DNA from: Myxococcus stipitatus DSM 14675
Lineage (GTDB): Bacteria; Myxococcota; Myxococcia; Myxococcales; Myxococcaceae
NCBI RefSeq assembly: GCF_000331735.1
Contig: NC_020126.1
Location: forward strand, 5,412,501 to 5,476,500
Length of the DNA: 64,000 bases
Direction: 5' to 3'
Position numbers and translations under genes: made by a program. Shown piece after piece: positions 49,228-61,600 of the stretch (position 1 is its first letter; the number at the start of each line of letters is the position of its first letter). Below the pieces are notes generated by a model. The model was given only the letters and a program-made list of their open reading frames with translations. It had not been told where the DNA came from and ran no database searches.

Positions 49228-52113
49228 ATGAGCAAGCGACGCTCGAGTCACAAGACCTCCAGCAAGCGGGAATCGGGCAAGGCCCTGTCCTCGGCCCAGG
49301 GGCTGCTGCATGCCGTTGGCGAGCAGGCCCCTCCGCCTCCGCCGCCCCGGTGGGTGAGGTATCTGGAGAAGCGGCTCACGACGGTGGTGGCGTTGCTGGT
49401 GGCCTTCCTGGCGCTCTCGCAGTTGCCCCAGGTCCACAACATCGTCCTCCAGTTGCCGAGCACGGCCTCCCTGCGCGGCGGCGGCTCCGCGCTCCTGGCC
49501 ATCGCCTTCTCGGCGTACGTCATCCTGCTCGGCATCTTCTTCTTCATGAGCGCGCTGTGGGTCTTCGTGCCGAGAGAGGACGACGAGTACCCCGGGTGGA
49601 TGAGACACCCCAATCGCGTCAGCCAAGGAGTGAAGGCCATCTGCAAGCGATTGGTCTCGCTCGCGCGCTTTCCCCTGGCGGAGGGCTCGGCCGGGCGGGT
49701 GTGGCTCCATGGCGCCATCATCGTGGCGGCGGTGACGCTGGGGGTCGTGGGCTGGCTGGGGTTGTTGCCCGCGCCGTGGAAGGCGAGAGACCCGGGCCCG
49801 AGCATCGTCGCGGGCCTGGCGCTGTCGGTGGGCCTGGTGGGGCTCTTCGGCCGGAGGTTCCTCGCGTGGAAGCCCTCGCTGGGCATCCAGGTGGAGGTCG
49901 TCACGCGCGGCCTGGTGATGACGCTGGGCTCGTACTTCCTCGCGGAGCTGCTGTGGGGGGTCTTCATCCCCAACGTCCCCGAGGCCAGCTTCCGGCTCTA
50001 CACCATCTGGGCCATCTACCACCTGCTCTTCGTGATTCTGTGTGTGGCGCGGGCGCTGGACCTGGTGCCGAACGTCGTGCGGCGCACCGTGTTCGCCCTG
50101 GCGGCGTTGGCGTGCATGTTCCTCATCGGCGAGCAGCTCGCGCGCCAGGGCACGCTCACGGCGCTGGCGCGTGAGGAGCCCGTGGACGCCCAGACGGTCT
50201 TCACCGAGTGGATGGAGTCGGCGAACGCGCGGCTGGACCAGATGTGTGACGGGCCTGTCGTCTTCGTCTCCGCCGCGGGGGGCGGCTCGCGGGCGGCCAT
50301 CTTCGCGATGCTGTCGCTGGAGAGCTTGAACCGCATGCGCGTCGACCCGCCGGACACGAGCACGCCTCGCTGCGTGGACCAGCGGCTCTCCGAGCACGTG
50401 CTCTTCATCAGCAGCGTCTCCGGGGGCAGCGTCGCCAGCGCGCACTTCTCCCACCGCCTGGCACAGGGGACCCTGGGGGTGCCCCTGGCGCCTGGGGTGC
50501 CGCTCAAGCATGCGCCGCGAGAGGAGCTGGAGGCGCACCTGATGGACGGGGCCTGTGGCTTGAAGGCGGACCGGCTCTGGCCCTTGAGCAGCGCGGCGCT
50601 GGACGACATGTTCGTGGACTTCAACGCGCCGCTCCTGCGCGGACTGGTGATGCCCGGCGTGAGCCGAGGCGAGGGCCTGGCCTCCTTCTGGTCCGACTAC
50701 CTCACCTGGCCCGCCAGCTTCTCCGAGCGGGGCCGAGCGCCGCTGCTCCTCGTCAACACGGCGAGCGCGAGGACGGGGGCGCGCGTCGTCACGGGCAAGC
50801 CGCCCCTCCCCTCGCTGATGGTCAACGACGGGAAGCAGCCCTCGGCGCCCGCGCGCTCCACGAGTGAGCTGGTCGCCAGCGGAGACATCGCGCTCGCGGA
50901 TGCGGTCCGGGCGTCCGCGAACTTCCCATGGATTGTCGACTTGCCCAGCGTGGTGGATGCGAAGGGCAACAAGGAGCCACTCATCGATGGCGGGGTGTTC
51001 GACAACACGGGGTTGGACACGTTCGTCTTGTTGTTGCGAGGGCTCACGGATTCAGAGCGCTGGAAGGCGAAGCCCGGGGCGCAGGCGGCCATCGACCAGT
51101 TCTTCGCGAAGCTGGAGCGGCGCGGGGTGTTGTTCGTGGAGATCGACTCGGGGGCGAAGCCACCGTCGCTCGACGAGAGCAGCAGCTCGGGAGGCGCTCT
51201 CTCCACGCCGCTGTCCGCGCTGTCTCGTGCGAGCCATGCGTTCGCGCGAGACATGGCGGAGTACCAGAAGGCGGAGATCGGCCGCCTCCTCGCGGGGAGG
51301 AAGGTCACCATGCTCCAGGCCAGCTACGACTATGGCGACGTGGAGCTCTCCGACGACGCGAGTCCGCAGCAGAGGGAGTGCTTCGCGGAGAACCAGGACG
51401 AGGTGATGACTGCGTGGGCGCTGGGACCCAAGGACAAGGGGCGGTTGTTGGGGCAGTTCCTCTGGCAGGAGGAGACCGTGGGCCAGCGCATCGCCAGCCA
51501 CATCAAGAACCTCCGCGGCGCGGCGCTGACGGAGCAGAGCCTCCTCGCGCTGCTGGAGCGAGGACTGGGCTCGAGCCAGACGGAGCCCTTCATCGCGAAG
51601 CTGAGGGACCCGGCGACGCTGGAGCTGGCGAAGCGGGTGACCGGGCGGCTCGCGAGCGACCAGGTGGCCTTGCAGCAGCAGGCCACCTCACGCCTCTATG
51701 ACCGCGACGCGCCGGCGGTGCAGGTGTTCCTCGACACGGAGATGCAGCGGCCCGAGCGGGAGGTCCAGCCCGACGTGGTCGAGAAGCTGGAGGATGGGAG
51801 CAAGGCCGCCTGGGTCTTCCTGGGTCAGTACCTGTCCGCCGGGAGCGCGTGGCGCACCTGCTACTTCTGCAAGCCGACGGACGCGCGGTGGTCCCAGCCT
51901 CCGCAGCAGTTCGTGGGGAGGACGATGGAGAGCACGGTCCCCGCGCTCTTGAGAGACGACCCGCCGACGGGCCAGCCCGCCACCGAGGGACGCACGTTGG
52001 GCGCCCTCAAGGTGGGCCAGAGTGTCACGGTGCTGGAGGTCCAGGACTGGAACAACCTGGGCTTCATCTGGGCGAAGGTGACGCTGGCTCCTCGGGAGAA
52101 GGCCAAGCACTAG
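49228..52113 (+). CDS. Membrane-anchored patatin-like phospholipase
   Basis: This 961-residue protein has about six N-terminal membrane helices (for example TVVALLVAFLALSQLP, LAIAFSAYVILLGIFFFMSALW, VFALAALACMFLIGEQLA). A patatin-like domain follows: oxyanion loop VVFVSAAGGGSRAAIFAML, nucleophile Ser in FISSVSGGSVASAHF, and the catalytic Asp in LIDGGVFDNTG. The Ser elbow lacks the first Gly of GxSxG, reading SVSGG. A C-terminal domain after residue 800 has paired Cys (WRTCYFCKPTDARW) and ends with an SH3-like strand (SVTVLEVQDWNNLGFIWAKVTL). It should act on lipid acyl chains at the inner membrane. The C-terminal role is unknown. Confidence 0.9.
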   Translation: MSKRRSSHKTSSKRESGKALSSAQGLLHAVGEQAPPPPPPRWVRYLEKRLTTVVALLVAFLALSQLPQVHNIVLQLPSTASLRGGGSALLAIAFSAYVILLGIFFFMSALWVFVPREDDEYPGWMRHPNRVSQGVKAICKRLVSLARFPLAEGSAGRVWLHGAIIVAAVTLGVVGWLGLLPAPWKARDPGPSIVAGLALSVGLVGLFGRRFLAWKPSLGIQVEVVTRGLVMTLGSYFLAELLWGVFIPNVPEASFRLYTIWAIYHLLFVILCVARALDLVPNVVRRTVFALAALACMFLIGEQLARQGTLTALAREEPVDAQTVFTEWMESANARLDQMCDGPVVFVSAAGGGSRAAIFAMLSLESLNRMRVDPPDTSTPRCVDQRLSEHVLFISSVSGGSVASAHFSHRLAQGTLGVPLAPGVPLKHAPREELEAHLMDGACGLKADRLWPLSSAALDDMFVDFNAPLLRGLVMPGVSRGEGLASFWSDYLTWPASFSERGRAPLLLVNTASARTGARVVTGKPPLPSLMVNDGKQPSAPARSTSELVASGDIALADAVRASANFPWIVDLPSVVDAKGNKEPLIDGGVFDNTGLDTFVLLLRGLTDSERWKAKPGAQAAIDQFFAKLERRGVLFVEIDSGAKPPSLDESSSSGGALSTPLSALSRASHAFARDMAEYQKAEIGRLLAGRKVTMLQASYDYGDVELSDDASPQQRECFAENQDEVMTAWALGPKDKGRLLGQFLWQEETVGQRIASHIKNLRGAALTEQSLLALLERGLGSSQTEPFIAKLRDPATLELAKRVTGRLASDQVALQQQATSRLYDRDAPAVQVFLDTEMQRPEREVQPDVVEKLEDGSKAAWVFLGQYLSAGSAWRTCYFCKPTDARWSQPPQQFVGRTMESTVPALLRDDPPTGQPATEGRTLGALKVGQSVTVLEVQDWNNLGFIWAKVTLAPREKAKH

Positions 52114-52745
52114 GGAATGTCCCTCGAGAGGCAGGCCATGTCCTCGGCACGGAGGGATTCGCGGATGACACGGGCACACGTCGCGTCGAAGTCGCGCTGG
52201 CGCTCCCGGGAGTAGTCATGCCGCGCGGACTCGGCGCGCAGCGCGTCGTCGAGGGCACGAGCAGTCAGCACGGCGAACTCCGCGTCGCGTTCCTCGCAGG
52301 CGGCCATGGACAGCTGCGCGACGGCGATGGCCGCGTGGACCGCCCCGGGCACGAAGGGAACGTGGCAGTAGCCCTCCAGGCAATCCGCCACATAGGCGGA
52401 GTGGCTCGCCTGGGCGGCCAGCGCGCTCACCTCATCGTGCCCGCGCCCTGGCGTGTCTCGGACCCAAGCCTCCGTGGCCTCCAGCGCGAGCGGCACGCAG
52501 TCCTCCACCGGCTCGTACCCCGGCGCCTTCGTCAAGGCGTGCTCCGTCGCGAGGCGCACGCACGCGCAGAGCGCGCGCAGGAGGAGCCTTCGCTCCAGCC
52601 CCACCGCCGTGGCGAGGCGTATCAACCAGGCTCCCGACGGACTCCCGTGCCACGCCTCGGCCAGCGTCAGGCCCCGGCTCCACGCCAGCAATTCGTCCGA
52701 GGCATTGGCGCGTCGCAGGAGGGCCTCGAGTTCCATCGCGTCCAC
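52110..52745 (-). CDS. Helical hypothetical protein, possibly immunity-like
   Basis: The GTG at 52745 has GGAGG five bases upstream; the ATG at 52736 is an alternative. The product is 211 residues, all helical: LIRLATAVGLERRLLLRALCACV, then TEHALTKAPGYEPVEDCVPLALEATEAWV, HSAYVADCLEGYC and HAAIAVAQLSMAACEERDAEF. Repeated Ala-rich helices with WV at the end of the second resemble the Imm5-type putative immunity fold, but this is a weak likeness. It overlaps the lipase stop by four bases on the opposite strand and diverges from the RiPP-like precursor gene. Confidence 0.65.
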   Translation of the reverse strand: MDAMELEALLRRANASDELLAWSRGLTLAEAWHGSPSGAWLIRLATAVGLERRLLLRALCACVRLATEHALTKAPGYEPVEDCVPLALEATEAWVRDTPGRGHDEVSALAAQASHSAYVADCLEGYCHVPFVPGAVHAAIAVAQLSMAACEERDAEFAVLTARALDDALRAESARHDYSRERQRDFDATCARVIRESLRAEDMACLSRDIP

Positions 52746-52939
52746 ACACACCTCCCCCTGAGGCCCTCGCGCTGGGCAAACCACCAGGGCGGGCCTCAAC
52801 TCAACACGGAGTCGCGGTGCCGCACAACGTCGGCTCATCGTGTGGAGCGAGCTGCCATGGGTGCCTGCTTGTCTCAGGTTCAAAGAATCAAGCAACTCCA
52901 GCTCTGGACGTCGCGATAACCCTGCTCAGAGGAAACAAC

Positions 52940-53620
52940 ATGACCCAGATCAAATCTCCCCAGGGCTTCATCTCGACGCTTCAGACCGCGCTGAAGTCCG
53001 CCAGCACGGGCGGCAAGGCCGTGGGCGTTCCGGCGCTGAAGAAGGCACTCCAGGGCACTGACGTGGGCGGGCTGAGCCCCCAGCAGAAGAACCTGGTGCG
53101 CGACGCCTTCGAGCAGGTGAAGTTGACCCCGAAGGCCCGCGAGCTCGCGGACCGCTTCGTGAGCGGCAAGGACATTGGCTTCAAGCCGCGCGAGAACGGC
53201 GGCATGGTCAAGGTCATGATGGATGACCCGACCCGCGGCTCGAAGATGCCGGACATCAAGCCTCCGCAAGACGGAACCGGCATCGTCAAGGTCATGATGG
53301 ATGACCCGACCCGCGGCTCGAAGCTCCCGGAGCTCAAGCCCTTGCCGGACGGCGGCATGGTCAAGGTCATGATGGATGACCCGACCCGCGGCTCGAAGAT
53401 GCCGGACATCAAGCCCCCTCAGGACGGAACCGGCATCGTCAAGGTCATGATGGATGACCCGACGCGCGGCTCGAAGCTCCCGGAGCTCAAGCCCTTGCAG
53501 GAAGGCGGCATCGTCAAGGTGATGATGGACGACCCGACGCGTGGCTCGAAGATGCCGGACATCAAGCCTCCTCAGGATGGAACGGGCATCCTCAAGGTCC
53601 GGATGGACAGCCCGGTCTGA
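52940..53620 (+). CDS. Multicore RiPP (graspetide-like) precursor peptide
   Basis: AGAGGAAA precedes the ATG at 52940. The 226-residue product has a helical leader of 88 residues (SPQGFISTLQTALKSAS ... RELADRFVSGKDIGF). Five near-identical units follow, then a partial sixth. Each unit has KVMMDDPTRGSK, then alternately MPDIKPPQDGTG or LPELKPLxxGG. Units run at residues 89-114, 115-139, 140-165, 166-190 and 191-216; the last ten residues are ILKVRMDSPV. Thr, Ser and Lys sit at fixed distance from Asp and Glu, as needed for ester or amide cross-links. The next gene is an ATP-grasp ligase. A structural repeat protein is the alternative. Confidence 0.8.
   Translation: MTQIKSPQGFISTLQTALKSASTGGKAVGVPALKKALQGTDVGGLSPQQKNLVRDAFEQVKLTPKARELADRFVSGKDIGFKPRENGGMVKVMMDDPTRGSKMPDIKPPQDGTGIVKVMMDDPTRGSKLPELKPLPDGGMVKVMMDDPTRGSKMPDIKPPQDGTGIVKVMMDDPTRGSKLPELKPLQEGGIVKVMMDDPTRGSKMPDIKPPQDGTGILKVRMDSPV
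53204..53617 (+). repeat. Tandem coding repeat, alternating 78/75-bp units
   Basis: Five full copies start at 53204, 53282, 53360, 53435-53438 and 53510, alternating two unit types so that the true period is 153 bp, with a partial sixth copy. Copies 1 and 3 and copies 2 and 4 are almost identical at the DNA level, so they arose by recent duplication or are kept alike by gene conversion. Confidence 0.85.
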
Positions 53621-53648
53621 AGTACGGGTGGGAGCAGCCTCGGTCCTC

Positions 53649-54587
53649 ATGGCATCGCGTAAGAAGGTCGTGGTCATCGGCTCGCGTTCGGATGACGCCA
53701 CCCGCTTCGTCGCGGAAGCAGTGGAGCGTCGCCGTGCGCGAGCCGTGCTCTTGGAGACGGACCGGGTGCCGGACTCAGCCGCCTTGAGTTGGGAGGACGG
53801 CGATGTGCACTGGGACGGTGAATGTCTCAGCGACTTGCGTTCGTTCTACATCAAGGTCGTGCGGCTCTCGCTCCCTGTCCCCGAAGCCGAGGCCCTGTCC
53901 GAGCGGAACTTCCCTCGGTGGCAGGAGCAATACCTGGCGGAGCGGGAGCGCCAGTCCTTCCTCCATTCCGTCCTGCGCGCGCTCCACCGGCGTGGAGGCT
54001 CGTTCGTCAATCCGCTGGAAGCCGTTGAGCTGCACTACCTGAAGCTCCATCAACTGGCCTTGCTGCGCCGTCACCGAATACCCGTTCCCAACACCCTGGC
54101 CACCACCTCGCCAGAGGCAGTGCGCGAGTTCGTCGCGCGACACCGCGCGGTCATCTACAAGCCGCTGGGAGGCGGTGCGCTGGTGCGCAAGGTGGAGGAG
54201 GCGGACCTCACCGAGGAGCGGCTCCAATTGCTCGCCAACTGTCCCGTGCTGTTCCAGGAGCAGATTGTGGGCGACGAGTACCGCGCCTACGTGCTCGACG
54301 GTGAGCCGGTGGCCGCCTTCCACATTCCCACCGACGGCGTGGTGGACGCGCGACAGAACCTGCATCGGACGAAGCCAGCCCGCCTGCCAAAGGACGCCTG
54401 GGCGCTGTGCATCAAGGGCGCGAAGGCACTGGGCATGGTCTTCACCGCCGTCGACCTGCGGCGCACGCGGGAAGGCGCCTTCGTCGCGCTTGAATTCAAC
54501 CCGACCCCCGCCATTTCCTTCTTCGATGATCCGCACGATGGCAAAGTCATCAGCCGGCTCGCCAGCTACCTCGTCTCCAAGGCCTGA
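53649..54587 (+). CDS. ATP-grasp ligase, graspetide synthetase/RimK type
   Basis: From the ATG at 53649 the product is 312 residues. The N-terminal Rossmann-like part reads KKVVVIGSRSDDATRFVAEA and RAVLLETDRVP, like MvdC/MvdD pre-ATP-grasp domains. SFVNPLEAVELHYLKLHQLALLRRH and IPVPNTLATTSPEAVREFV are typical of the group. ATP-binding residues are in AVIYKPLGGGALV and VLFQEQIVGDEYRAYVLDG. The metal-binding end is LEFNPTPAISFFDD. It probably activates Asp/Glu side chains as acyl phosphates and joins them to Thr/Ser/Lys of the precursor. It lies 28 bp after the precursor gene. A RimK-like tail-adding role is the alternative. Confidence 0.85.
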   Translation: MASRKKVVVIGSRSDDATRFVAEAVERRRARAVLLETDRVPDSAALSWEDGDVHWDGECLSDLRSFYIKVVRLSLPVPEAEALSERNFPRWQEQYLAERERQSFLHSVLRALHRRGGSFVNPLEAVELHYLKLHQLALLRRHRIPVPNTLATTSPEAVREFVARHRAVIYKPLGGGALVRKVEEADLTEERLQLLANCPVLFQEQIVGDEYRAYVLDGEPVAAFHIPTDGVVDARQNLHRTKPARLPKDAWALCIKGAKALGMVFTAVDLRRTREGAFVALEFNPTPAISFFDDPHDGKVISRLASYLVSKA

Positions 54588-55293
54588 GCGCCCGAGCGGG
54601 TTCTTCATCTCGGACTTCGCCGACAGCTATTTCGGCCCTGTCTCCACGCGGGAGATCGAGAAGGACTTCCCCGCGTCCGCGGCGGACTGGACACGCCTCG
54701 CCTCCACATCCGACTCCTTGCGCACCGCCATCCGCCAGGAGTTCATCGAAGGCGGCCGGGTGCCCCATGTGTGCCTCCAGGAGGCCCTCCTTCCAGAGCG
54801 CGCCGAGGCGCTGCACCAGGCCCTGTGCAACGCACGCTTCGTGCGTCATCACCATGGCCCCTATGCGCTGCACGTCGCACCGCTGAATCAGCAGGTGCCG
54901 TCTGCCCTGACGGACTTCTGTGCCTGGCTTCAGAGCAAGGAGGGTGCGGACTTCCACGCGGCGCTGGTGGGCTGGCCCGAACCACTGGAGACACGACAGG
55001 TGCAGGTGTCCCGGATGGACGTGGGAGAGCACTTCCCCGAGCACCGGGACACGGACGAGGAAGGGCTCGCCGTCGTCTACAACTTCACACGGCCCTGGCA
55101 GCCTTCCTTCGGAGGTGTCCTCACCTTCAGGCATCCGGAAGCGGAGTCGGACCTGATGCGTGTCCCGCCTCTCTTCAACTCGGTGTTCATCTTCCGTCCG
55201 AGTGGCGCCCCTCACCGGGTGACGGAGTGGACATCGGCCGCCCAGGGCCACCACCGCTACTCCATCACCGCCTTCATTCTCGCGAAGCGTTGA
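54538..55293 (+). CDS. 2OG-Fe(II) oxygenase family protein
   Basis: The reading frame overlaps the ATP-grasp gene by 50 bases if it starts at the ATG at 54538; the ATG at 54526 is also possible. The product is about 251 residues. The iron site is EHFPEHRDTDEE (HxD) with the distal His in RPSGAPHRVTEW, and an Arg ten residues later (HHRYSITAFIL) can bind the 2-oxoglutarate carboxylate. This matches the prolyl-hydroxylase-like 2OG-FeII_Oxy fold. The overlap implies coupled expression with the ligase. It may hydroxylate the precursor repeats, but no substrate evidence is in the sequence. Confidence 0.85.
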   Translation: MAKSSAGSPATSSPRPERPSGFFISDFADSYFGPVSTREIEKDFPASAADWTRLASTSDSLRTAIRQEFIEGGRVPHVCLQEALLPERAEALHQALCNARFVRHHHGPYALHVAPLNQQVPSALTDFCAWLQSKEGADFHAALVGWPEPLETRQVQVSRMDVGEHFPEHRDTDEEGLAVVYNFTRPWQPSFGGVLTFRHPEAESDLMRVPPLFNSVFIFRPSGAPHRVTEWTSAAQGHHRYSITAFILAKR

Positions 55294-55560
55294 AGGCTTG
55301 AGACCTCACCAAGGCGGGCTTGCATCCGGGCCCGCTGCGCTGACTGAGGATCTGAGACCTCGTCAAGCGCGGCTCCACTGATGCGTGCAGGCTCCATCGC
55401 GGCCTGGATGTCCGCGGAGACAACAAGCACACCAGACCATCCCCAGGGGCGGAAGACCTTGGCGTCTCCCACCTTCATCGGGTCAATCGGCATTCCATTT
55501 CTGTCCAGCACGCCCCCCTGCGCCTCCCTCCGAAGGAAGGCAGCCGGAGCGCAGGCTGGC
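55257..55560 (-). pseudogene. Fragment of an immunity-like (DUF1629/Imm11-type) protein
   Basis: The minus-strand frame encodes VLDRNGMPIDPMKVGDAK, then VFRPWGWSGVLVVSADIQA and ARISGAALDEVSDP, which read like the C-terminal end of an Imm11/DUF1629 protein. Upstream in the same frame the sequence becomes Cys/Ala/Arg-rich and loses protein character, and no good start is near, so the N-terminal part seems to be missing. The end overlaps the oxygenase gene by 37 bases. The family is inferred from memory of the pattern and is not certain. Confidence 0.4.
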
Positions 55561-55839
55561 ACCGATGCCTGACACGCCTGCGAAGAATCGACAGGCTCGC
55601 GGAATCTTACAGCGTCACGCAGACAGCTCCCGCCCCACCCTGCCCAGACTCGGGCGTGTCTCCATCCAACCCCCAAGGGAACTTATCCCATTTGCTACCC
55701 ATGAGGGAGTCTTCTGTTGGACATCATTCCAACCATCGACTTCCGACATTCAACCAGAGTCCTTGAACCTCTGATATTCATGTCCACCACGAAGGTCGTA
55801 TGCTCCCATCCACTCCCACTCCAAATCCGGGGACGTCCC
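55561..55839. other. Intergenic region without recognisable gene
   Basis: About 280 bp of lower GC content than the surroundings, especially 55690-55800. It separates the immunity-like fragment from the XRE gene. I see no stable hairpin with a T-run and no convincing promoter pair. A TGATATTC-ATGT stretch (55776-55789) loosely recalls the 31-kb repeats but lacks their core. Confidence 0.5.
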
Positions 55840-56085
55840 ATGAATGAAGAACTGGCCATCACCATCGGTTCGAGAGCACGAGCGGCGCGCGAGAAGCTCG
55901 GGCTGACACGCGCGGAGGTGGCCGAGCGCGTGGGGCTCGATGAACCCGTGTACGGCCGTCTGGAGCGAGGCAAGATGCTGCCCAAGGCCGTCATCCTCCA
56001 TCGCCTCAGCGAGGCGCTGGGACTCTCCCCACAGGACTTGATGGGCCTGGCGCCCGGCGAGAGCGTCGACACCTTCCTCCACTGA
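55840..56085 (+). CDS. XRE-family helix-turn-helix regulator
   Basis: The ATG at 55840 gives 81 residues; the frame is open further upstream but without family likeness. A single Cro/C1-type domain fills the protein: IGSRARAAREKLGLTRAEVAERVGLDEPVYGRLERGKMLPKAVILHRLSEALGLSPQDLMGL. There is no sensing domain. It stands alone among remnants, with no obvious toxin or phage partner, so its target is unknown. Confidence 0.85.
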   Translation: MNEELAITIGSRARAAREKLGLTRAEVAERVGLDEPVYGRLERGKMLPKAVILHRLSEALGLSPQDLMGLAPGESVDTFLH

Positions 56086-56317
56086 ACCGAGGGTCGTGAT
56101 TCGCGCTCAGGCAGAGGGGCAAGCAGGTCCGGGCGGAGCGGGAAGAGGGAGCAGGGGCACCTCTCGTTCGGCTCTGTGTGCGCAGAAAACCTGAGAGCAA
56201 GAAGGCCCTGCCCGAGGGCAAAGGTAGGCAGTGGTTGAAGAGAAAGCAGAGGCAAGCGCTGCTTCGGTGGGCAGCCAGGAGTGGCTGCCCGCTCAATGAC
56301 CTCGATCAGGGCTGCTT

Positions 56318-56539
56318 GTGGCGTGGAACGGCGTCCACGTCGCCATCTTCTATGCGTGGCTGTCCGTGGCGAACCACTGGGAGTGGAGACACACGTGGTA
56401 CGTCGCCGCGTCCCTGCTGATGGTCGGCGTCGTCGTGCGGTGGGGCATGCCGTCGCGAATGCCCGGGGCCGAGTCGGCGGTGCCGAGCCAGCCAGCCAAA
56501 CCGCTTGCGCCTCAGTCGTCGCGCTCCGCTGGAACGTGA
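56318..56539 (+). CDS. Possible short membrane protein or fragment
   Basis: This GTG-started frame encodes 73 residues with two hydrophobic segments (GVHVAIFYAWLSVA and WYVAASLLMVGVVVRWGM) joined by NHWEWRHT, then a Pro/Ser tail. The frame is open six codons further upstream (PRSGLL), so it may be the tail of a longer, broken gene. There is no ribosome-binding site. The region 56086-56317 before it shows no gene. Confidence 0.35.
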   Translation: MAWNGVHVAIFYAWLSVANHWEWRHTWYVAASLLMVGVVVRWGMPSRMPGAESAVPSQPAKPLAPQSSRSAGT

Positions 56540-56589
56540 GGCACCGAATCGCATCCCACCGTCGTCCGATGACCTGAAAGCTCAATCCC

Positions 56590-57483
56590 TCACGCGGGCA
56601 CGCCGCCGTGAGGGGGAAGCCTCTTCGAGCCCTCGTGCTCTCCCTGTCGCTTCACCCACATCCGATAGGGCGTGAGCGCGAGCAGGCGGATGACGACGAA
56701 AGCACCGACGATGCCCGCGACCTCCAGGGCCCGGTAGTTCGGGTAGCTCTGGATGATGATGGTCATCGACAACACCGGATGCGCGAACGCCGCGGCCAGG
56801 GCCACCGCCTTGCGGTCCTCCATCCTGGGCCCGCCCGCCCAGTGCCCCAGCAGCGCGGACACCGTGACGAGCATCACCAGCGCCACCACCGCGAGCCACG
56901 CGACGTGGATGAGCTTCGGCCCCACGATGAAGAGCAGTCCCACGGACACCGCGATGAGCAGCACGGTGAACACGCGGCTGCACCACGGCGCCACCGCCCG
57001 CGCCACGCGCGGCAGGTAGTGCCGCACGGCAATCCCCACCGCGAGCGGCGGAAGGATCTTCACCGCCAGCAGTCGGAACACCAGGTCCGGGCTGGCCTCG
57101 AACTCCACCCCCAGCAGCCGGTCCAACACCCCCACCCACGCGGGCACGGTGACGAGCGCGCACACGCTGAGCAGCAAGAGCAGGTTGATGGAGGTGGTGG
57201 GATTCGCCCCCAAGGACTTCGCCTGGTTCACCTGCAACGGCGCCCCAGGACACACGGCCATGAGCAGGATCGCGCTCGCCAGCACCGTTGGCAGTCGGAA
57301 CGCGTAGACCACCCCCAGCGCCACCAGCGGAACGAACAGCAGCACCACCACCAGGGCGCGCACGTAGAGCGCGGGGCGCTCGAGGACGTGGCGAATCTCA
57401 CCGGGCTCGCGGGCCAGTCCTTCGCTGAACATGAACAGGGTGACGATGTTGCTCAGCACGAAGGCAATCACGGACCTGAGCAT
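56590..57483 (-). CDS. Bile acid:sodium symporter-family (SBF-like) membrane protein
   Basis: From the ATG at 57483 (GGGGGAG upstream) the product is 297 residues with about nine membrane helices. The family region near helix 3-4 reads AILLMAVCPGAPLQVNQAKSLGANPTTSINLLLLL, containing the crossing-helix CPG and the polar Asn/Thr needed for ions. A second such site is FAHPVLSMTIIIQSYPN. It should carry an organic anion with sodium. It is the last gene of the minus-strand group that includes asparaginase; a gap of 106 bp separates it from its upstream neighbour. Confidence 0.85.
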   Translation of the reverse strand: MLRSVIAFVLSNIVTLFMFSEGLAREPGEIRHVLERPALYVRALVVVLLFVPLVALGVVYAFRLPTVLASAILLMAVCPGAPLQVNQAKSLGANPTTSINLLLLLSVCALVTVPAWVGVLDRLLGVEFEASPDLVFRLLAVKILPPLAVGIAVRHYLPRVARAVAPWCSRVFTVLLIAVSVGLLFIVGPKLIHVAWLAVVALVMLVTVSALLGHWAGGPRMEDRKAVALAAAFAHPVLSMTIIIQSYPNYRALEVAGIVGAFVVIRLLALTPYRMWVKRQGEHEGSKRLPPHGGVPA

Positions 57484-57589
57484 GCTCGCTCCCCCCGGGC
57501 GCCACCCGAGCGGGCTCCCATGACCAACGTCCTCACCCGCGCCCCTTACGAGGAGCCCCGGGCATCCGGCCACGCGAGCGCCCGGGCCA

Positions 57590-58747
57590 TCAGCTCACGC
57601 TCTGGCGAAGCTGGTTCACCACCGCCAGGAACTGCCGGTCCAACACCAACAGGATGACGAGCGGCGACAGGCCCGACAGCCCCACCGCGATGACCGAGCG
57701 CTTGTCCCATGGGAACAGCTTCATCTTGCGCGCCAGGATGAACGACGAGCCCAGGTCCGCCAGGGACGAGAACTCCGGCGCCCCCAGGAGCTTCTCGTCC
57801 CGAGGCTCCTGGGCATGGAACCACTTGTCCTCGAACCGCCGCGAGTGGTGCGCGGCCACCGCGGAGAACCACGCGTCCGCCCGGCGCTTGGAGCGGACCA
57901 TCTGGTGGCAGAAGAACGTCAGCGGCGCGAAGACCGCCACACAGGCCAGCACGGCGAAGAGGACCTGCGGCATCACATACGTGATGGGCGTCTCGGTGAT
58001 GGCCGCGGCGTTCGTGCGGAACGAGTACGCCGCGACGGGGACCGCCGCCGCGAACACCAGGGGCGAGAAACAGGCCTGGTGGATGGACAGGAACCCGAGC
58101 CCGCCGGCCTGGTCCGGATGGGTGGGCACCAGCCGCAGCGGGAGCCGGGACGCGCGCCAGAGGAAGACGGACCACACGGCGCCTCGCCACAGCCAGCGGA
58201 GCATGAGGAAGCGCTCCAGGGGCTGGCTCACGCACAGGTACCAGCCGCCCGCCAGCGAGGGCCGCTGCGACGCGCCCCCTTCGACCATCCAGGACCTGGA
58301 GGCATCCATCGTCGTCAGCACCGCGAACGCGATGGTGAGGCCCAGCAAGGCCAGCTCGACGGACGGAGCATCGCGCCACCGCGCCATCCTCGCGACGGAG
58401 ACCTCATAGGCCCGGCGGTCCTTGTCCTCCACCAGGTCCGCGCGGAGGAACTCGCGCGCCGCTTCACCGACGCGCGCGTCGATGTAGGGCTCCGCGACCA
58501 CCATCACCGGCAGGGACAGGAGGAGCTCCGCGTGGACCTGGAACTCGGAGAACAGCCGCTGCACGGCGCCCTCCCCCTGGAGCAGCGAGAACAGCACCAG
58601 GGGGAGCCAGCTCACCAGCACCAGCAGGAGGGCGGCCCGGCCCGTCATGAAGCGCGGGGGCCTGACGAGTCGAAGCCCGCGCTCCAGGTCGTAGAAGGGG
58701 CCGCCCCGGACCAGCGAGAACTCGGGGAGTGTCCGGGAATCAGCCAT
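57590..58747 (-). CDS. Multi-pass membrane protein of unknown function
   Basis: The product is 385 residues with six or more membrane helices, for example AALLLVLVSWLPLVLFSLL, LALLGLTIAFAVLTTM, ACFSPLVFAAAVPVAAYSF, MPQVLFAVLACVAVFAPLTFF and VIAVGLSGLSPLVILLVL. A conserved-looking loop reads LVPTHPDQAGGLGFLSIHQ, and a charged cytoplasmic part (HHSRRFEDKWFHAQEPRDEKLLG) follows helix 5. No transporter or enzyme family is recognised. It lies 25 bp after the asparaginase gene and is likely cotranscribed. Confidence 0.75.
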   Translation of the reverse strand: MADSRTLPEFSLVRGGPFYDLERGLRLVRPPRFMTGRAALLLVLVSWLPLVLFSLLQGEGAVQRLFSEFQVHAELLLSLPVMVVAEPYIDARVGEAAREFLRADLVEDKDRRAYEVSVARMARWRDAPSVELALLGLTIAFAVLTTMDASRSWMVEGGASQRPSLAGGWYLCVSQPLERFLMLRWLWRGAVWSVFLWRASRLPLRLVPTHPDQAGGLGFLSIHQACFSPLVFAAAVPVAAYSFRTNAAAITETPITYVMPQVLFAVLACVAVFAPLTFFCHQMVRSKRRADAWFSAVAAHHSRRFEDKWFHAQEPRDEKLLGAPEFSSLADLGSSFILARKMKLFPWDKRSVIAVGLSGLSPLVILLVLDRQFLAVVNQLRQSVS

Positions 58748-58772
58748 GGAGGGTCCCGGGCCGCGCGAGCCC

Positions 58773-59915
58773 TCAATACTCCTGGAACATCCGCTGGATG
58801 CGCGCGGGGTCCTTCGTCTCCTGCAGCGCCAGCTGCAACAGCACGCGAGACTTCGCGGGGTTCAACTCACCCGAGGCCACGAAGCCCTTCTCGTCGTCGT
58901 TGATCTCGTTGTTGCGCAGGACCAGGCCGCTGGGAAGCCGCGTGCTGCGGACCACCACCACGCCCTTCTTCGCGTGCTTCGTCAGCGCGTCCAACGCCGG
59001 CTGGGTCATGTTCCCATCGCCCACGCCCGCGATGACCAGCCCCTTGGCGCCGTTCTTCACCGCGGCGTCGATGAGGTCCGGGCTCATGTTCGCGTGGGCG
59101 TAGAGGATGTCCACGCGCGGGAGCGAGTCCTTGCCCACGACGGAGAACTCGGAGTCCACCGTGTGGCGCTTGTCCATCTTCTCGAACCAGCTGATCTTCC
59201 CCGTGTTGACCACGCCGGACGGGCCGCGGTTGAGGCTGCGGAAGGTCTCCACGTTGGTGGTGTTCGTCTTCGTGACGTTGCGGGCCGCGTGGATTTCATC
59301 GTTGATGACCACCAGCACGCCGCGCCCCTTCGCCTCGGGCGAGGCCGCGACGGCCACCGCGTCGTAGAGGTTCCCCGGCCCGTCCGCGCTGATGGCGGTG
59401 GCGGGCCGCATGGAGCCCACGAGCACGACGGGCTTGTTGCTCTTCACCACCAGGTCCAGGAAGTACGACGTCTCCTCCAGCGTGTCGGTGCCGTGGGTGA
59501 TGACCACGGCGTCCACCTCGGGCGAGGCCAGGAGCTCATTGGTCCGCTTCGCCAACTTCAGCCAGACCGCGTCGTTCATGTCCTGGCTGCCGATGTTGAC
59601 CACCTGCTCGCCGGACAGCTTCGCCAGCTTGTCCACGTTGGGGACGCTCTTGATGAGGTCCTCGACCTTGAAGGTCCCGGCCTTGTAGCCGTACCCCTGG
59701 GGATTCCCCTGGGCACCGGCGATGGTGCCTCCCGTGGCGAGGATTCGCACGGACGCCTTGGGCGCCTCCGCCGCCTTCGCCTTCTCCTTCGCGGGCGCCG
59801 CCTGCCCCGTCGCGGGCGGCGACTGGGCGTCTTGCTGGGCGGCGATTCCCGCCCCCGTCATCAGGAGCCCCAGGGCACATACCGCTCCCCACACACTGTT
59901 CTTCGAGCCGTTCAT
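58773..59915 (-). CDS. Type II (periplasmic) L-asparaginase
   Basis: The ATG at 59915 has GGGAGG upstream and gives 380 residues. A signal peptide (SVWGAVCALGLLMTGAGIAA) and an Ala/Lys/Pro linker precede the enzyme. Both active-site motifs are present: ILATGGTIAG with the nucleophile Thr, and VVITHGTDTLEETSYFLDL with the Thr-Asp pair. It hydrolyses asparagine to aspartate and ammonia outside the inner membrane. It starts 11 bp after the aspartate 4-decarboxylase stop, so both are in one operon and act in sequence on asparagine, though in different compartments. Confidence 0.95.
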   Translation of the reverse strand: MNGSKNSVWGAVCALGLLMTGAGIAAQQDAQSPPATGQAAPAKEKAKAAEAPKASVRILATGGTIAGAQGNPQGYGYKAGTFKVEDLIKSVPNVDKLAKLSGEQVVNIGSQDMNDAVWLKLAKRTNELLASPEVDAVVITHGTDTLEETSYFLDLVVKSNKPVVLVGSMRPATAISADGPGNLYDAVAVAASPEAKGRGVLVVINDEIHAARNVTKTNTTNVETFRSLNRGPSGVVNTGKISWFEKMDKRHTVDSEFSVVGKDSLPRVDILYAHANMSPDLIDAAVKNGAKGLVIAGVGDGNMTQPALDALTKHAKKGVVVVRSTRLPSGLVLRNNEINDDEKGFVASGELNPAKSRVLLQLALQETKDPARIQRMFQEY

Positions 59916-59926
59916 GGTCGACCTCC

Positions 59927-61600
59927 CTACGAATCCAGGTCGTGCTGCTGCCACTCCCGGATGGCGCGAATGACGATGTCCTTGAGGCTCTGGCCGATGC
60001 GCGGATAGGCGTCATCGTCCAGGTTCGCCAGGGACACACGGGCGGACCACTCGGGGCCCTCGAAGCCGCTGCCATTGAGGAGCACCACGCCGTGCCGCCG
60101 CGCCAGGGACAGCACGATGTCGAGCGGGTCATGCCGGGCCCGTTCATACTCGACGAACTCCGCGCCGATGTGCTTCCGCGCCCACGCCTCCAGGTCCAGT
60201 GTCTGGTAGTACGCGGTTCGCAGCGGATCCTCGGGCAGGTCGATGCCCATGCCCTCGTACAGCGAGGCCAGCCGCTCGCGGCAGATGCGCCGGCAGCGCT
60301 TCTTGTAGGCGTCGTCCTTGTCCAGGAGCGAGAACATCGAGAAGAGCGTCATCTGGAGCTGCTGGGGCAGCGACAGGCCCGCGGTGTGGTTGAGCGCGAC
60401 GGCGCGGCTGTCCGCCACCATCCGGTCGATGAACTTCAGCTGCTCCGGCTTCAGCGAGATGGAGCCATAGCGCTCGTCCAGCAGCTCGCGCTGCGACGCC
60501 GGAAGCCGCGCCAGCATCGTGTCCAGGATGTTGTCCTCGTGCAGCGCGACCACGCCCAGCCGCCAGCCGGTGCAGCCGAAGTGCTTCGAGTAGGAGTAGA
60601 CCAGGAGCGTGTTGTGCGGCAGCTCCGCCGCCAGCGAGCGGAAGCCCTCCACGAAGGTGCCGTACACATCGTCGGTGAGCAGCAGCAGGTCCGGCCGCTT
60701 CTTCTGGACGATGCTCACCAGCAGGTCCAGCGACTCGCGCCGCATCGCCGTCGCACCCGGGTTGCCGGGGTGCACGACGAAGAACGCCTTGATGCGCGGG
60801 TCCTCCAGCTTGCGCAGCTCCGACTCCGGATACTGCCAGGTGTGTCGGCCCTCCGCGGTCATCTCGCTCTGGCGGATGTCCACCGTGCGCAGGTCGAACT
60901 CCTCCAGCCGGGGAATCTCCAGGTAGGGCGTGAAGATGGGCGTGCCCAGCGCGATGGTGTCGCCCTTCTTGAGCACGCCATTCACCATCAGCGAGCGGAA
61001 GATGTACGCCATCGCGGCGGTGCCGCCCTCGACGGCGAACAGGTCGAACCGGCCCGGAGGCGGACGGCCGTCGCACATCTCTCGAGCCAGGTAGGTCTGC
61101 ACGATGCGCTCGGCGTGGACGAGCATCCGGTCCGGCACCGGGTAGTTGTCGCCGATGGCCGCGTCGGTGAGCTCCCAGACGAAGGCATCCGCGTCGAACC
61201 CCAGCTCGCGGACGCCGTACTCCACCGAGTCGCGCAGCAGTCGGACGGCGGGGCTGTCGTCACACGTCTCCAGGAAGTCGCGCAGCCGCTGGGCGATGTC
61301 CGGTGAGCGAGGCATGCCCGCCAGGCCCACCTCCGGCTCGTTCCACGTGCGGCGGCACTCGCGCAGGGCGAACTGGCCCAGGAGGAAGAACGCCTCGCGC
61401 GGCGTGGTGGCAATCCAGTTGGGGTTGCCGCGCCCCGCGTTGAGCATCACCGCCGCGCGTGTCTTCGCGGACTCATCCGCCAGCTCGATGAGCGTGTCCT
61501 TGAGCTCGAACGGGCTGAGCTTGTGGAGCTCGCGCGTGGAGGCGACATCCTCATCGCTCCGGGTGCCCGTGTCCGCCTCGGTCGTCGTCTCCGTGCTCAT
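59927..61600 (-). CDS. aspD: Aspartate 4-decarboxylase (bifunctional aspartate aminotransferase)
   Basis: This 557-residue PLP enzyme of fold type I is longer than ordinary aminotransferases and matches AspD. Its N-terminal extension reads LSPFELKDTLIELADESAKTRAAVMLNAGRGNPNW. The PLP Lys is in VYSYSKHFGCTGWRLG (near residue 339). KAFFVVHPGNPGATAM and LLLLTDDVYGTF provide cofactor contacts. It converts aspartate to alanine and CO2. In other bacteria it works with the AspT antiporter to build proton motive force; an AspT-family gene lies in this window. It is the first gene of the group with asparaginase. Confidence 0.94.
   Translation of the reverse strand: MSTETTTEADTGTRSDEDVASTRELHKLSPFELKDTLIELADESAKTRAAVMLNAGRGNPNWIATTPREAFFLLGQFALRECRRTWNEPEVGLAGMPRSPDIAQRLRDFLETCDDSPAVRLLRDSVEYGVRELGFDADAFVWELTDAAIGDNYPVPDRMLVHAERIVQTYLAREMCDGRPPPGRFDLFAVEGGTAAMAYIFRSLMVNGVLKKGDTIALGTPIFTPYLEIPRLEEFDLRTVDIRQSEMTAEGRHTWQYPESELRKLEDPRIKAFFVVHPGNPGATAMRRESLDLLVSIVQKKRPDLLLLTDDVYGTFVEGFRSLAAELPHNTLLVYSYSKHFGCTGWRLGVVALHEDNILDTMLARLPASQRELLDERYGSISLKPEQLKFIDRMVADSRAVALNHTAGLSLPQQLQMTLFSMFSLLDKDDAYKKRCRRICRERLASLYEGMGIDLPEDPLRTAYYQTLDLEAWARKHIGAEFVEYERARHDPLDIVLSLARRHGVVLLNGSGFEGPEWSARVSLANLDDDAYPRIGQSLKDIVIRAIREWQQHDLDS

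What the first reader, a model, noticed from the sequence alone, without database searches (positions are those of the whole stretch)
52940..55293. Multicore graspetide-like locus: five-repeat precursor, ATP-grasp ligase and 2OG-Fe(II) oxygenase
Seen: a precursor with an 88-residue leader and five and a half copies of a unit built on KVMMDDPTRGSK, followed at once by an ATP-grasp ligase and, overlapping it, a 2OG-Fe(II) oxygenase. Known: graspetides (microviridin, plesiocin) are made by such ligases, which join Asp/Glu to Thr/Ser/Lys in repeated cores. Inference: each unit becomes a small ring system and the oxygenase adds a hydroxyl. The DDPTRGSK core and the oxygenase partner do not match any graspetide class I can recall.
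Basis: partly seen in the sequence, partly recalled or inferred. Interest (0 to 1): 0.88.

Follow-up and report, generated by a model that had tools for sequence, protein, structure and literature searches.

The report
Corallotide-type peptide cluster in Myxococcus
Three neighbouring genes of a soil myxobacterium most likely make a repeated peptide carrying small hydroxylated lysine-to-aspartate rings, a chemistry published in 2026 as corallotide from the related genus Corallococcus, so this is a new host and variant of a known product rather than a new class.

Summary
In detail: a 226-residue precursor with five exact KVMMDDPTRGSK units plus a terminal KVRMDSPV, then an ATP-grasp ligase, then an overlapping 2OG-Fe(II) oxygenase. 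The class is known: corallotide (graspetide group 15; PMC13097080, March 2026). There CorB joins Lys to Asp in KxxxD motifs and CorC hydroxylates that Lys. The window's ligase and oxygenase are 92% and 81% identical to those of Corallococcus exercitus, whose precursor carries the same KVMMDDPTRGSK unit.

New here: the genome is Myxococcus stipitatus by exact length, while the paper restricts the group to Corallococcus. CorD, the paper's beta-lactamase, is missing here and in all 8 non-Corallococcus loci found. Of 195 Myxococcota genomes 23 have the oxygenase, 22 of them beside ligase and KxxxD(D/E)P precursor. One distant relative fuses ligase and oxygenase; another has a precursor with both KxxxDDP and TTxxxxEED motifs and two ligases. 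Chemistry in the window is inferred; product function is unknown.

The parts
52940..53620 (+). CorA-like precursor, 226 aa: helical-type leader about residues 1-88, then the repeat region
   Evidence: 65% to the precursor of C. exercitus locus L039 and 94% to L041
52940..53182 (+). leader domain (residues 1-81)
   Evidence: alignment A2; profile finds it once per genome, in 19 of 195 Myxococcota genomes, each time at this cluster
53210..53230 (+). ring motif 1 KVMMDDP; predicted isopeptide Lys91-Asp95, Lys delta-OH
   Evidence: by analogy with KIVAD of PMC13097080
53288..53308 (+). ring motif 2 KVMMDDP; Lys117-Asp121
53363..53383 (+). ring motif 3 KVMMDDP; Lys142-Asp146
53441..53461 (+). ring motif 4 KVMMDDP; Lys168-Asp172
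53516..53536 (+). ring motif 5 KVMMDDP; Lys193-Asp197
53594..53617 (+). terminal KVRMDSPV, conserved as K(V)(R/K)MD(S)P at the C-terminus of the Corallococcus precursors too; possible sixth ring, Lys219-Asp223, not shown anywhere
   Evidence: a terminal K...D[STV]P in 15 of 19 precursors
53649..54587 (+). CorB-like graspetide synthetase (ATP-grasp), 312 aa
54526..55293 (+). CorC-like 2OG-Fe(II) oxygenase, up to 255 aa if the ATG at 54526 is used; start not settled
   Evidence: HxD, distal His and Arg kept in 19 of 19 aligned rows

Best explanation
The three genes are a corallotide (cor) biosynthetic cluster in Myxococcus stipitatus DSM 14675, without corD. The leader recruits the enzymes; CorB uses ATP to activate the Asp carboxylate of each KVMMD motif and the Lys four residues before it attacks, giving an i to i+4 isopeptide ring (-18 Da); CorC, bound to CorB, then hydroxylates the ring Lys at its delta carbon (+16 Da). 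The product is a large peptide with five, perhaps six, hydroxylated KxxxD rings on Pro/Gly-rich linkers. Shown here: gene content, homology, conservation of motif and catalytic residues. Shown by others for C. exercitus: ring, hydroxylation, order of steps, CorB-CorC complex. Inferred: that the same happens in M. stipitatus. I think the rings act as local rigid turns in a structural or surface-acting peptide; that last step is a guess.
For: Ligase 91.7% and oxygenase 80.7% identical to locus L039 of C. exercitus. L039's precursor contains the tryptic peptide NPDDGVIVKIVADDPLR that the paper solved by NMR, and three copies of the window's DDPTRGSK unit. In 19 precursors (all that I extracted, of 22 genomes with a complete set) 108 of 108 D[DE]P sites have Lys at -4; no E[DE]P and no R...D[DE]P occur. 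The precursor ORFs were chosen for motif number, which cannot by itself make every D[DE]P carry a Lys. Between the window and its nearest relative L041 the motif codons differ by 7 synonymous and 0 non-synonymous changes, other codons by 21 and 14. HxD, distal His and 2OG Arg are kept in 19 of 19 oxygenases. Of 23 Myxococcota genomes with the oxygenase, 22 have the ligase and a K...D[DE]P frame beside it; the other, G070, is an eroded remnant. KxxxD ligases form a clade apart from TT-core ligases (100/98), and 0 of 18 loci of more distant ligases hold a K...D[DE]P frame. One relative, G186, fuses ligase and oxygenase in one 587-aa ORF, which fits the reported CorB-CorC complex.
Against: No mass or expression data for M. 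stipitatus; a term search of the one transcriptome paper held found nothing on it. CorD, present in all group 15 clusters according to the paper, is absent here. The paper says group 15 was only found in Corallococcus, which this contradicts; I could not see its supplementary tables. Ligase scores under the TIGR04187 cut-off. The AlphaFold2 model of the oxygenase failed (mean pLDDT 38.9), so its fold rests on sequence profiles. No promoter-like or terminator-like site was found in 52700-55700.
Confidence: 0.9

Rival explanations
1. A graspetide of another topology: the ligase forms esters or amides within DDPTRGSK (Asp to Thr, Ser or the second Lys).
For: All five window units carry DDPTRGSK exactly; graspetide synthetases can use Thr, Ser and Lys (PMC13097080 introduction).
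Against: PTRGSK is not conserved: Thr or Ser follows the Pro in 60 of 108 sites, DDPTRGSK occurs in 7 of 19 precursors, and in L034, L035, L038, L044 and L045 no site has Thr or Ser there. Already in L041, 96% identical in the ligase, three of five units lack it. C. exercitus, which has the same unit, was shown to use KxxxD.
Confidence: 0.05
2. The ligase cyclises the repeats but the oxygenase does something else, for example Asp or Pro hydroxylation, or acts mainly as an activator of the ligase.
For: CorC activates CorB in vitro. The nearest solved structures by profile are only marginal: OGFOD1, HIF-type prolyl hydroxylase and prolyl 4-hydroxylase (E 0.003 to 0.05). Another graspetide cluster uses oxygenases on Asp (SmaO/SmaX, cited in PMC13097080).
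Against: 81% identity to CorC-type proteins of C. exercitus, and the iron and 2OG residues are intact.
Confidence: 0.06
3. A decayed or silent cluster: corD was lost and the remaining genes no longer make a product.
For: corD is absent; a Corallococcus genome (G070) shows that such clusters do decay, with leader joined to the oxygenase end and no ligase.
Against: All three frames are open; motif codons show only synonymous change against L041; corD is missing in 8 of 8 loci outside Corallococcus and in C. sicarius and was dispensable for CorC in vitro.
Confidence: 0.06

Closest known systems
Corallotide (cor cluster, graspetide group 15), Corallococcus exercitus, PMC13097080
   Same: Gene order precursor, ligase, oxygenase; leader; KxxxD(D/E)P repeats including the identical KVMMDDPTRGSK unit; ligase 92%, oxygenase 81% to locus L039
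   Different: Host genus Myxococcus; no corD; five identical KVMMD motifs rather than a mix of KIVAD, KVMMD and KIRMD as in L039; clusters lie in different flanks
Plesiocin-type graspetides (group 2; ligase PsnB, PDB 7drm by recall)
   Same: Nearest solved ligase, E 1.3e-39; long leader-repeat precursor
   Different: Plesiocin-type cores use TTxxxxEE hairpin esters (motif recalled); the window precursor has no TT pair, and KxxxD ligases form a separate clade
SmaO/SmaX graspetide cluster (group 18)
   Same: Graspetide cluster with oxygenases
   Different: Those modify Asp on the linear peptide, independent of the ligase (as cited in PMC13097080)

Membership tests
Graspetide | ATP-grasp ligase of the graspetide synthetase type beside a precursor | tested here: met
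   best PDB match 7drm 1.3e-39; TIGR04187 1e-25 though under its cut-off; precursor 28 nt upstream
Graspetide | Side-chain ester or amide rings between Asp/Glu and Ser/Thr/Lys | not testable with these tools
   needs mass spectrometry
Corallotide / graspetide group 15 | CorB orthologue (group defined by synthetase similarity) | tested here: met
   91.7% to L039; in an 8-row clade with six Corallococcus ligases, support 98/98
Corallotide / graspetide group 15 | Repeated KxxxD core motif | tested here: met
   5 KVMMDDP plus terminal KVRMDSP
Corallotide / graspetide group 15 | CorC 2OG-Fe(II) oxygenase with intact iron and 2OG residues | tested here: met
   80.7% to L039; residues kept in 19 of 19 rows
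Corallotide / graspetide group 15 | corD beta-lactamase in the cluster (a reported companion; the paper found it nonessential) | tested here: not met
   no tblastn hit in the 64-kb window; best in the genome 38%, elsewhere
Corallotide / graspetide group 15 | 5-hydroxylysine-Asp isopeptide in the product | not testable with these tools
   shown for C. exercitus only
Corallotide / graspetide group 15 | Restricted to Corallococcus (reported distribution, not a defining trait) | tested here: not met
   8 of 23 oxygenase-bearing genomes fall outside genus g26, which is Corallococcus by two matching contig lengths
Plesiocin type (group 2) | TTxxxxEE core (recalled) | tested here: not met
   no TT in the precursor

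The most novel reading that the evidence does not exclude
KxxxD hydroxy-isopeptide formation is a portable ring cassette of Myxococcota rather than a Corallococcus speciality. It works without CorD and, in some lineages, without the usual leader; its two enzymes act as one unit, fused in G186; and it is combined in G183 with plesiocin-like TTxxxxEED motifs on a single precursor served by two ligases. Because i to i+4 Lys-Asp lactams are known to stabilise a helical turn, the M. stipitatus product would be a string of natural lactam-stapled turns, used as a structural or surface-acting peptide.
Probability: 0.3. Interest if true: 0.62.

Novelty: new member of a known kind. Interest (0 to 1): 0.42.

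Why it matters
It moves a chemistry described once, and said to be limited to Corallococcus, into a completely sequenced Myxococcus species and six further genomes outside Corallococcus and this strain's nearest kin (G018, G073, G071, G077, G183, G186). It separates essential parts (leader-core precursor, CorB, CorC, KxxxD(D/E)P) from the accessory CorD. The naturally fused CorB-CorC protein and the two-motif, two-ligase precursor are ready-made substrates for testing how the enzymes cooperate and whether two graspetide ring types can be built on one peptide.

Tried and rejected
Considered and rejected: rings in DDPTRGSK; plesiocin-type membership (no TT in the precursor); CorD hidden elsewhere in the genome (best 38%, generic serine-hydrolase paralogues); a second set of precursors in the genome (leader profile gives one match per genome).

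Led nowhere: AlphaFold2 of the oxygenase on ten rows gave mean pLDDT 38.9, so no fold search was run. Promoter and terminator scan found nothing (it covers sigma-70-type sites only). NCBIfam gave no match for the oxygenase; phmmer against the PDB gave it only E 0.59 and a profile 0.003. Term searches in PMC8939145 and PMC8561891 found none of the terms. I first noted that G183 also fuses ligase and oxygenase; reading its frames showed separate overlapping genes, corrected.

Errors of mine: one search read the precursor one base out of frame; the XRE query was two bases off its ATG (55840), so I use only the DNA match for that gene; one search used the CorD reference one codon early; one search failed for a missing file and was redone.

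Full report
What is there. The precursor (52940-53620, 226 aa) has a leader of about 88 residues, five exact KVMMDDPTRGSK units and a terminal KVRMDSPV. The ligase (53649-54587) follows after 28 nt and the oxygenase overlaps its end. The motif count is far above shuffles of the same core (5 against a mean of 0.04, maximum 2 in 10,000). The ligase is nearest to PDB 7drm (E 1.3e-39), which I recall as PsnB of plesiocin. The oxygenase matches PF13640.

Which genome. The contig holding the window has 10,350,586 bases, exactly the length published for Myxococcus stipitatus DSM 14675 (PMC3622980, text read in part 1 of 2). This is identification by length, not by a named record.

What is known. PMC13097080 (abstract, passages and sections 5, 7, 10, 11, 12 and 13 read; not its figures or supplement) reports corallotide from Corallococcus exercitus: CorB makes a Lys-Asp isopeptide in five KxxxD motifs, CorC then hydroxylates the Lys at the delta carbon, CorC binds and activates CorB, and CorD, a beta-lactamase homologue, is not essential. 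The authors saw the group only in Corallococcus and state that all its clusters carry CorD. It is the only paper in the library with the word corallotide. No paper there holds both 'graspetide' and 'stipitatus'.

Identity of the two systems. Against C. exercitus locus L039 the ligase is 91.7%, the oxygenase 80.7% and the precursor 65% identical. L039's precursor contains the NMR-solved fragment NPDDGVIVKIVADDPLR and three DDPTRGSK units. L039 has six K...D[DE]P motifs plus a terminal KVKMDSPV, one more than the five modified sites in the paper; I do not know whether it is the same strain.

Where the rings are. I extracted precursors from 19 genomes. All 108 D[DE]P sites have Lys at -4; there is no E[DE]P and no R...D[DE]P. 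Thr or Ser follows the Pro in 60 of 108, and DDPTRGSK is found in 7 of 19 precursors. One precursor (L042) has an assembly gap. Between the window and L041 the 42 motif codons show 7 synonymous and 0 non-synonymous changes, the other 185 codons 21 and 14; by hand arithmetic the chance of 0 of 7 is about 0.04, so this is supportive, not strong.

Catalytic residues. In 19 aligned oxygenases the HxD, the distal His and the 2OG-binding Arg (assigned from the family pattern by recall) are invariant.

Distribution. A profile of the oxygenase found it in 23 of 195 Myxococcota genomes held: 15 in genus g26, 3 in the window's genus, 1 in g8, 2 in g17 and 2 in other families. In 22 of 23 the ligase and a frame with at least two K...D[DE]P lie beside it; G070 is a remnant with leader and oxygenase end joined, no ligase, but CorD kept. 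CorD is present in 14 of 15 Corallococcus genomes (not in C. sicarius) and 0 of 8 outside. Other phyla could not be searched by profile; the one named-genome scan was pattern-based and returned 8 Corallococcus loci and one Myxococcaceae MAG.

Specificity control. The more distant ligases (about 33-36% identity) that the search handed out as loci, L014 to L031, hold no K...D[DE]P frame in 18 of 18; 16 of 18 have at least one TT....E[ED], though a single match in any frame can be chance and the flanks are only about 1.5 kb. In a ligase tree the KxxxD and TT-core clades separate with 100/98 support; the program warned of long branches for the two G183 ligases.

Origin in M. stipitatus. Three of 27 genomes of the genus carry the cluster. 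The window and G009 share flanks (patatin, bile-acid-type symporter, asparaginase); 11 other cluster loci tested have none of these flanks. G014, G008 and G013 keep the flanks without the cluster. The window's ligase sits inside a clade with six Corallococcus ligases (98/98), but the oxygenase tree leaves its place open and puts G018 elsewhere than the ligase tree does. Horizontal gain from a Corallococcus-like donor is plausible; loss in the relatives is not excluded.

Leader. The leader profile matches once per genome in 19 of 195 genomes, each time at this cluster; in four Corallococcus-group genomes only its first 36-38 positions match, and the g17 genomes, G183 and G186 have none. The g17 precursors (L044, L045) have no room for an 80-residue leader before the first motif.

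Two unusual relatives. In G186 the ligase and oxygenase form one 587-aa ORF with both Pfam domains, next to a 540-aa ORF with a leader-like start, two KIRADDP motifs and a long C-terminal part without Pfam match. In G183 a precursor cut off by the contig end has eight TTxxxxEED and two KVRADDP motifs, followed by two ligases and a separate oxygenase; one ligase is nearest to a TT-core ligase (43%), the other to the CorB clade (about 38-40%). These support a CorB-CorC unit and suggest one peptide with two ring types; neither has been tested.

Function. Unknown. The authors saw no antibacterial activity and noted collagen-like aggregation and CD. My suggestion that each ring is a natural lactam staple rests on work with designed peptides in which KxxxD, but not KxxxE, lactams stabilised helix (PMC9543606, passages only), in line with the absence of Glu at the acceptor here. 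Against it, CD of corallotide did not change with modification.

Verdict. A real, well-conserved corallotide-type cluster in a new host genus, without CorD: a new member of a known kind.

Noticed in passing
L101:2850-4613 (-) (unnamed Myxococcota genome G186): CorB-type ligase and CorC-type oxygenase fused in one 587-aa ORF, beside a 540-aa ORF with two KIRADDP motifs and a long C-terminal part of unknown family.
   Followed up: partly
L102, minus strand, from the contig end to about 9001 (unnamed Myxococcota genome G183): One precursor with eight TTxxxxEED and two KVRADDP motifs, followed by two different ligases and an oxygenase: apparently two graspetide ring types on one peptide. The precursor start is missing at the contig end.
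   Followed up: partly
L044 and L045 (genus g17): KxxxD(D/E)P precursors of 107 and 167 aa without the usual helical leader; in four Corallococcus-group genomes the leader matches only over its first 36-38 positions.
   Followed up: partly
L103:7144-8004 (+) (G070, Corallococcus): Eroded cluster: leader remnant runs into the end of the oxygenase, ligase gone, CorD still present.
   Followed up: partly
window 49228-61600 with L104, L105, L106: Patatin-like, symporter, asparaginase and aminotransferase-fold genes flank the cluster and are kept without it in three relatives, so the site is occupied in M. stipitatus and G009 only among those compared.
   Followed up: partly
window 58773-61600 (-): An asparaginase gene overlaps an aminotransferase class I/II gene of 557 aa (perhaps an aspartate 4-decarboxylase, by recall), suggesting an asparagine-aspartate degradation pair.
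   Followed up: no
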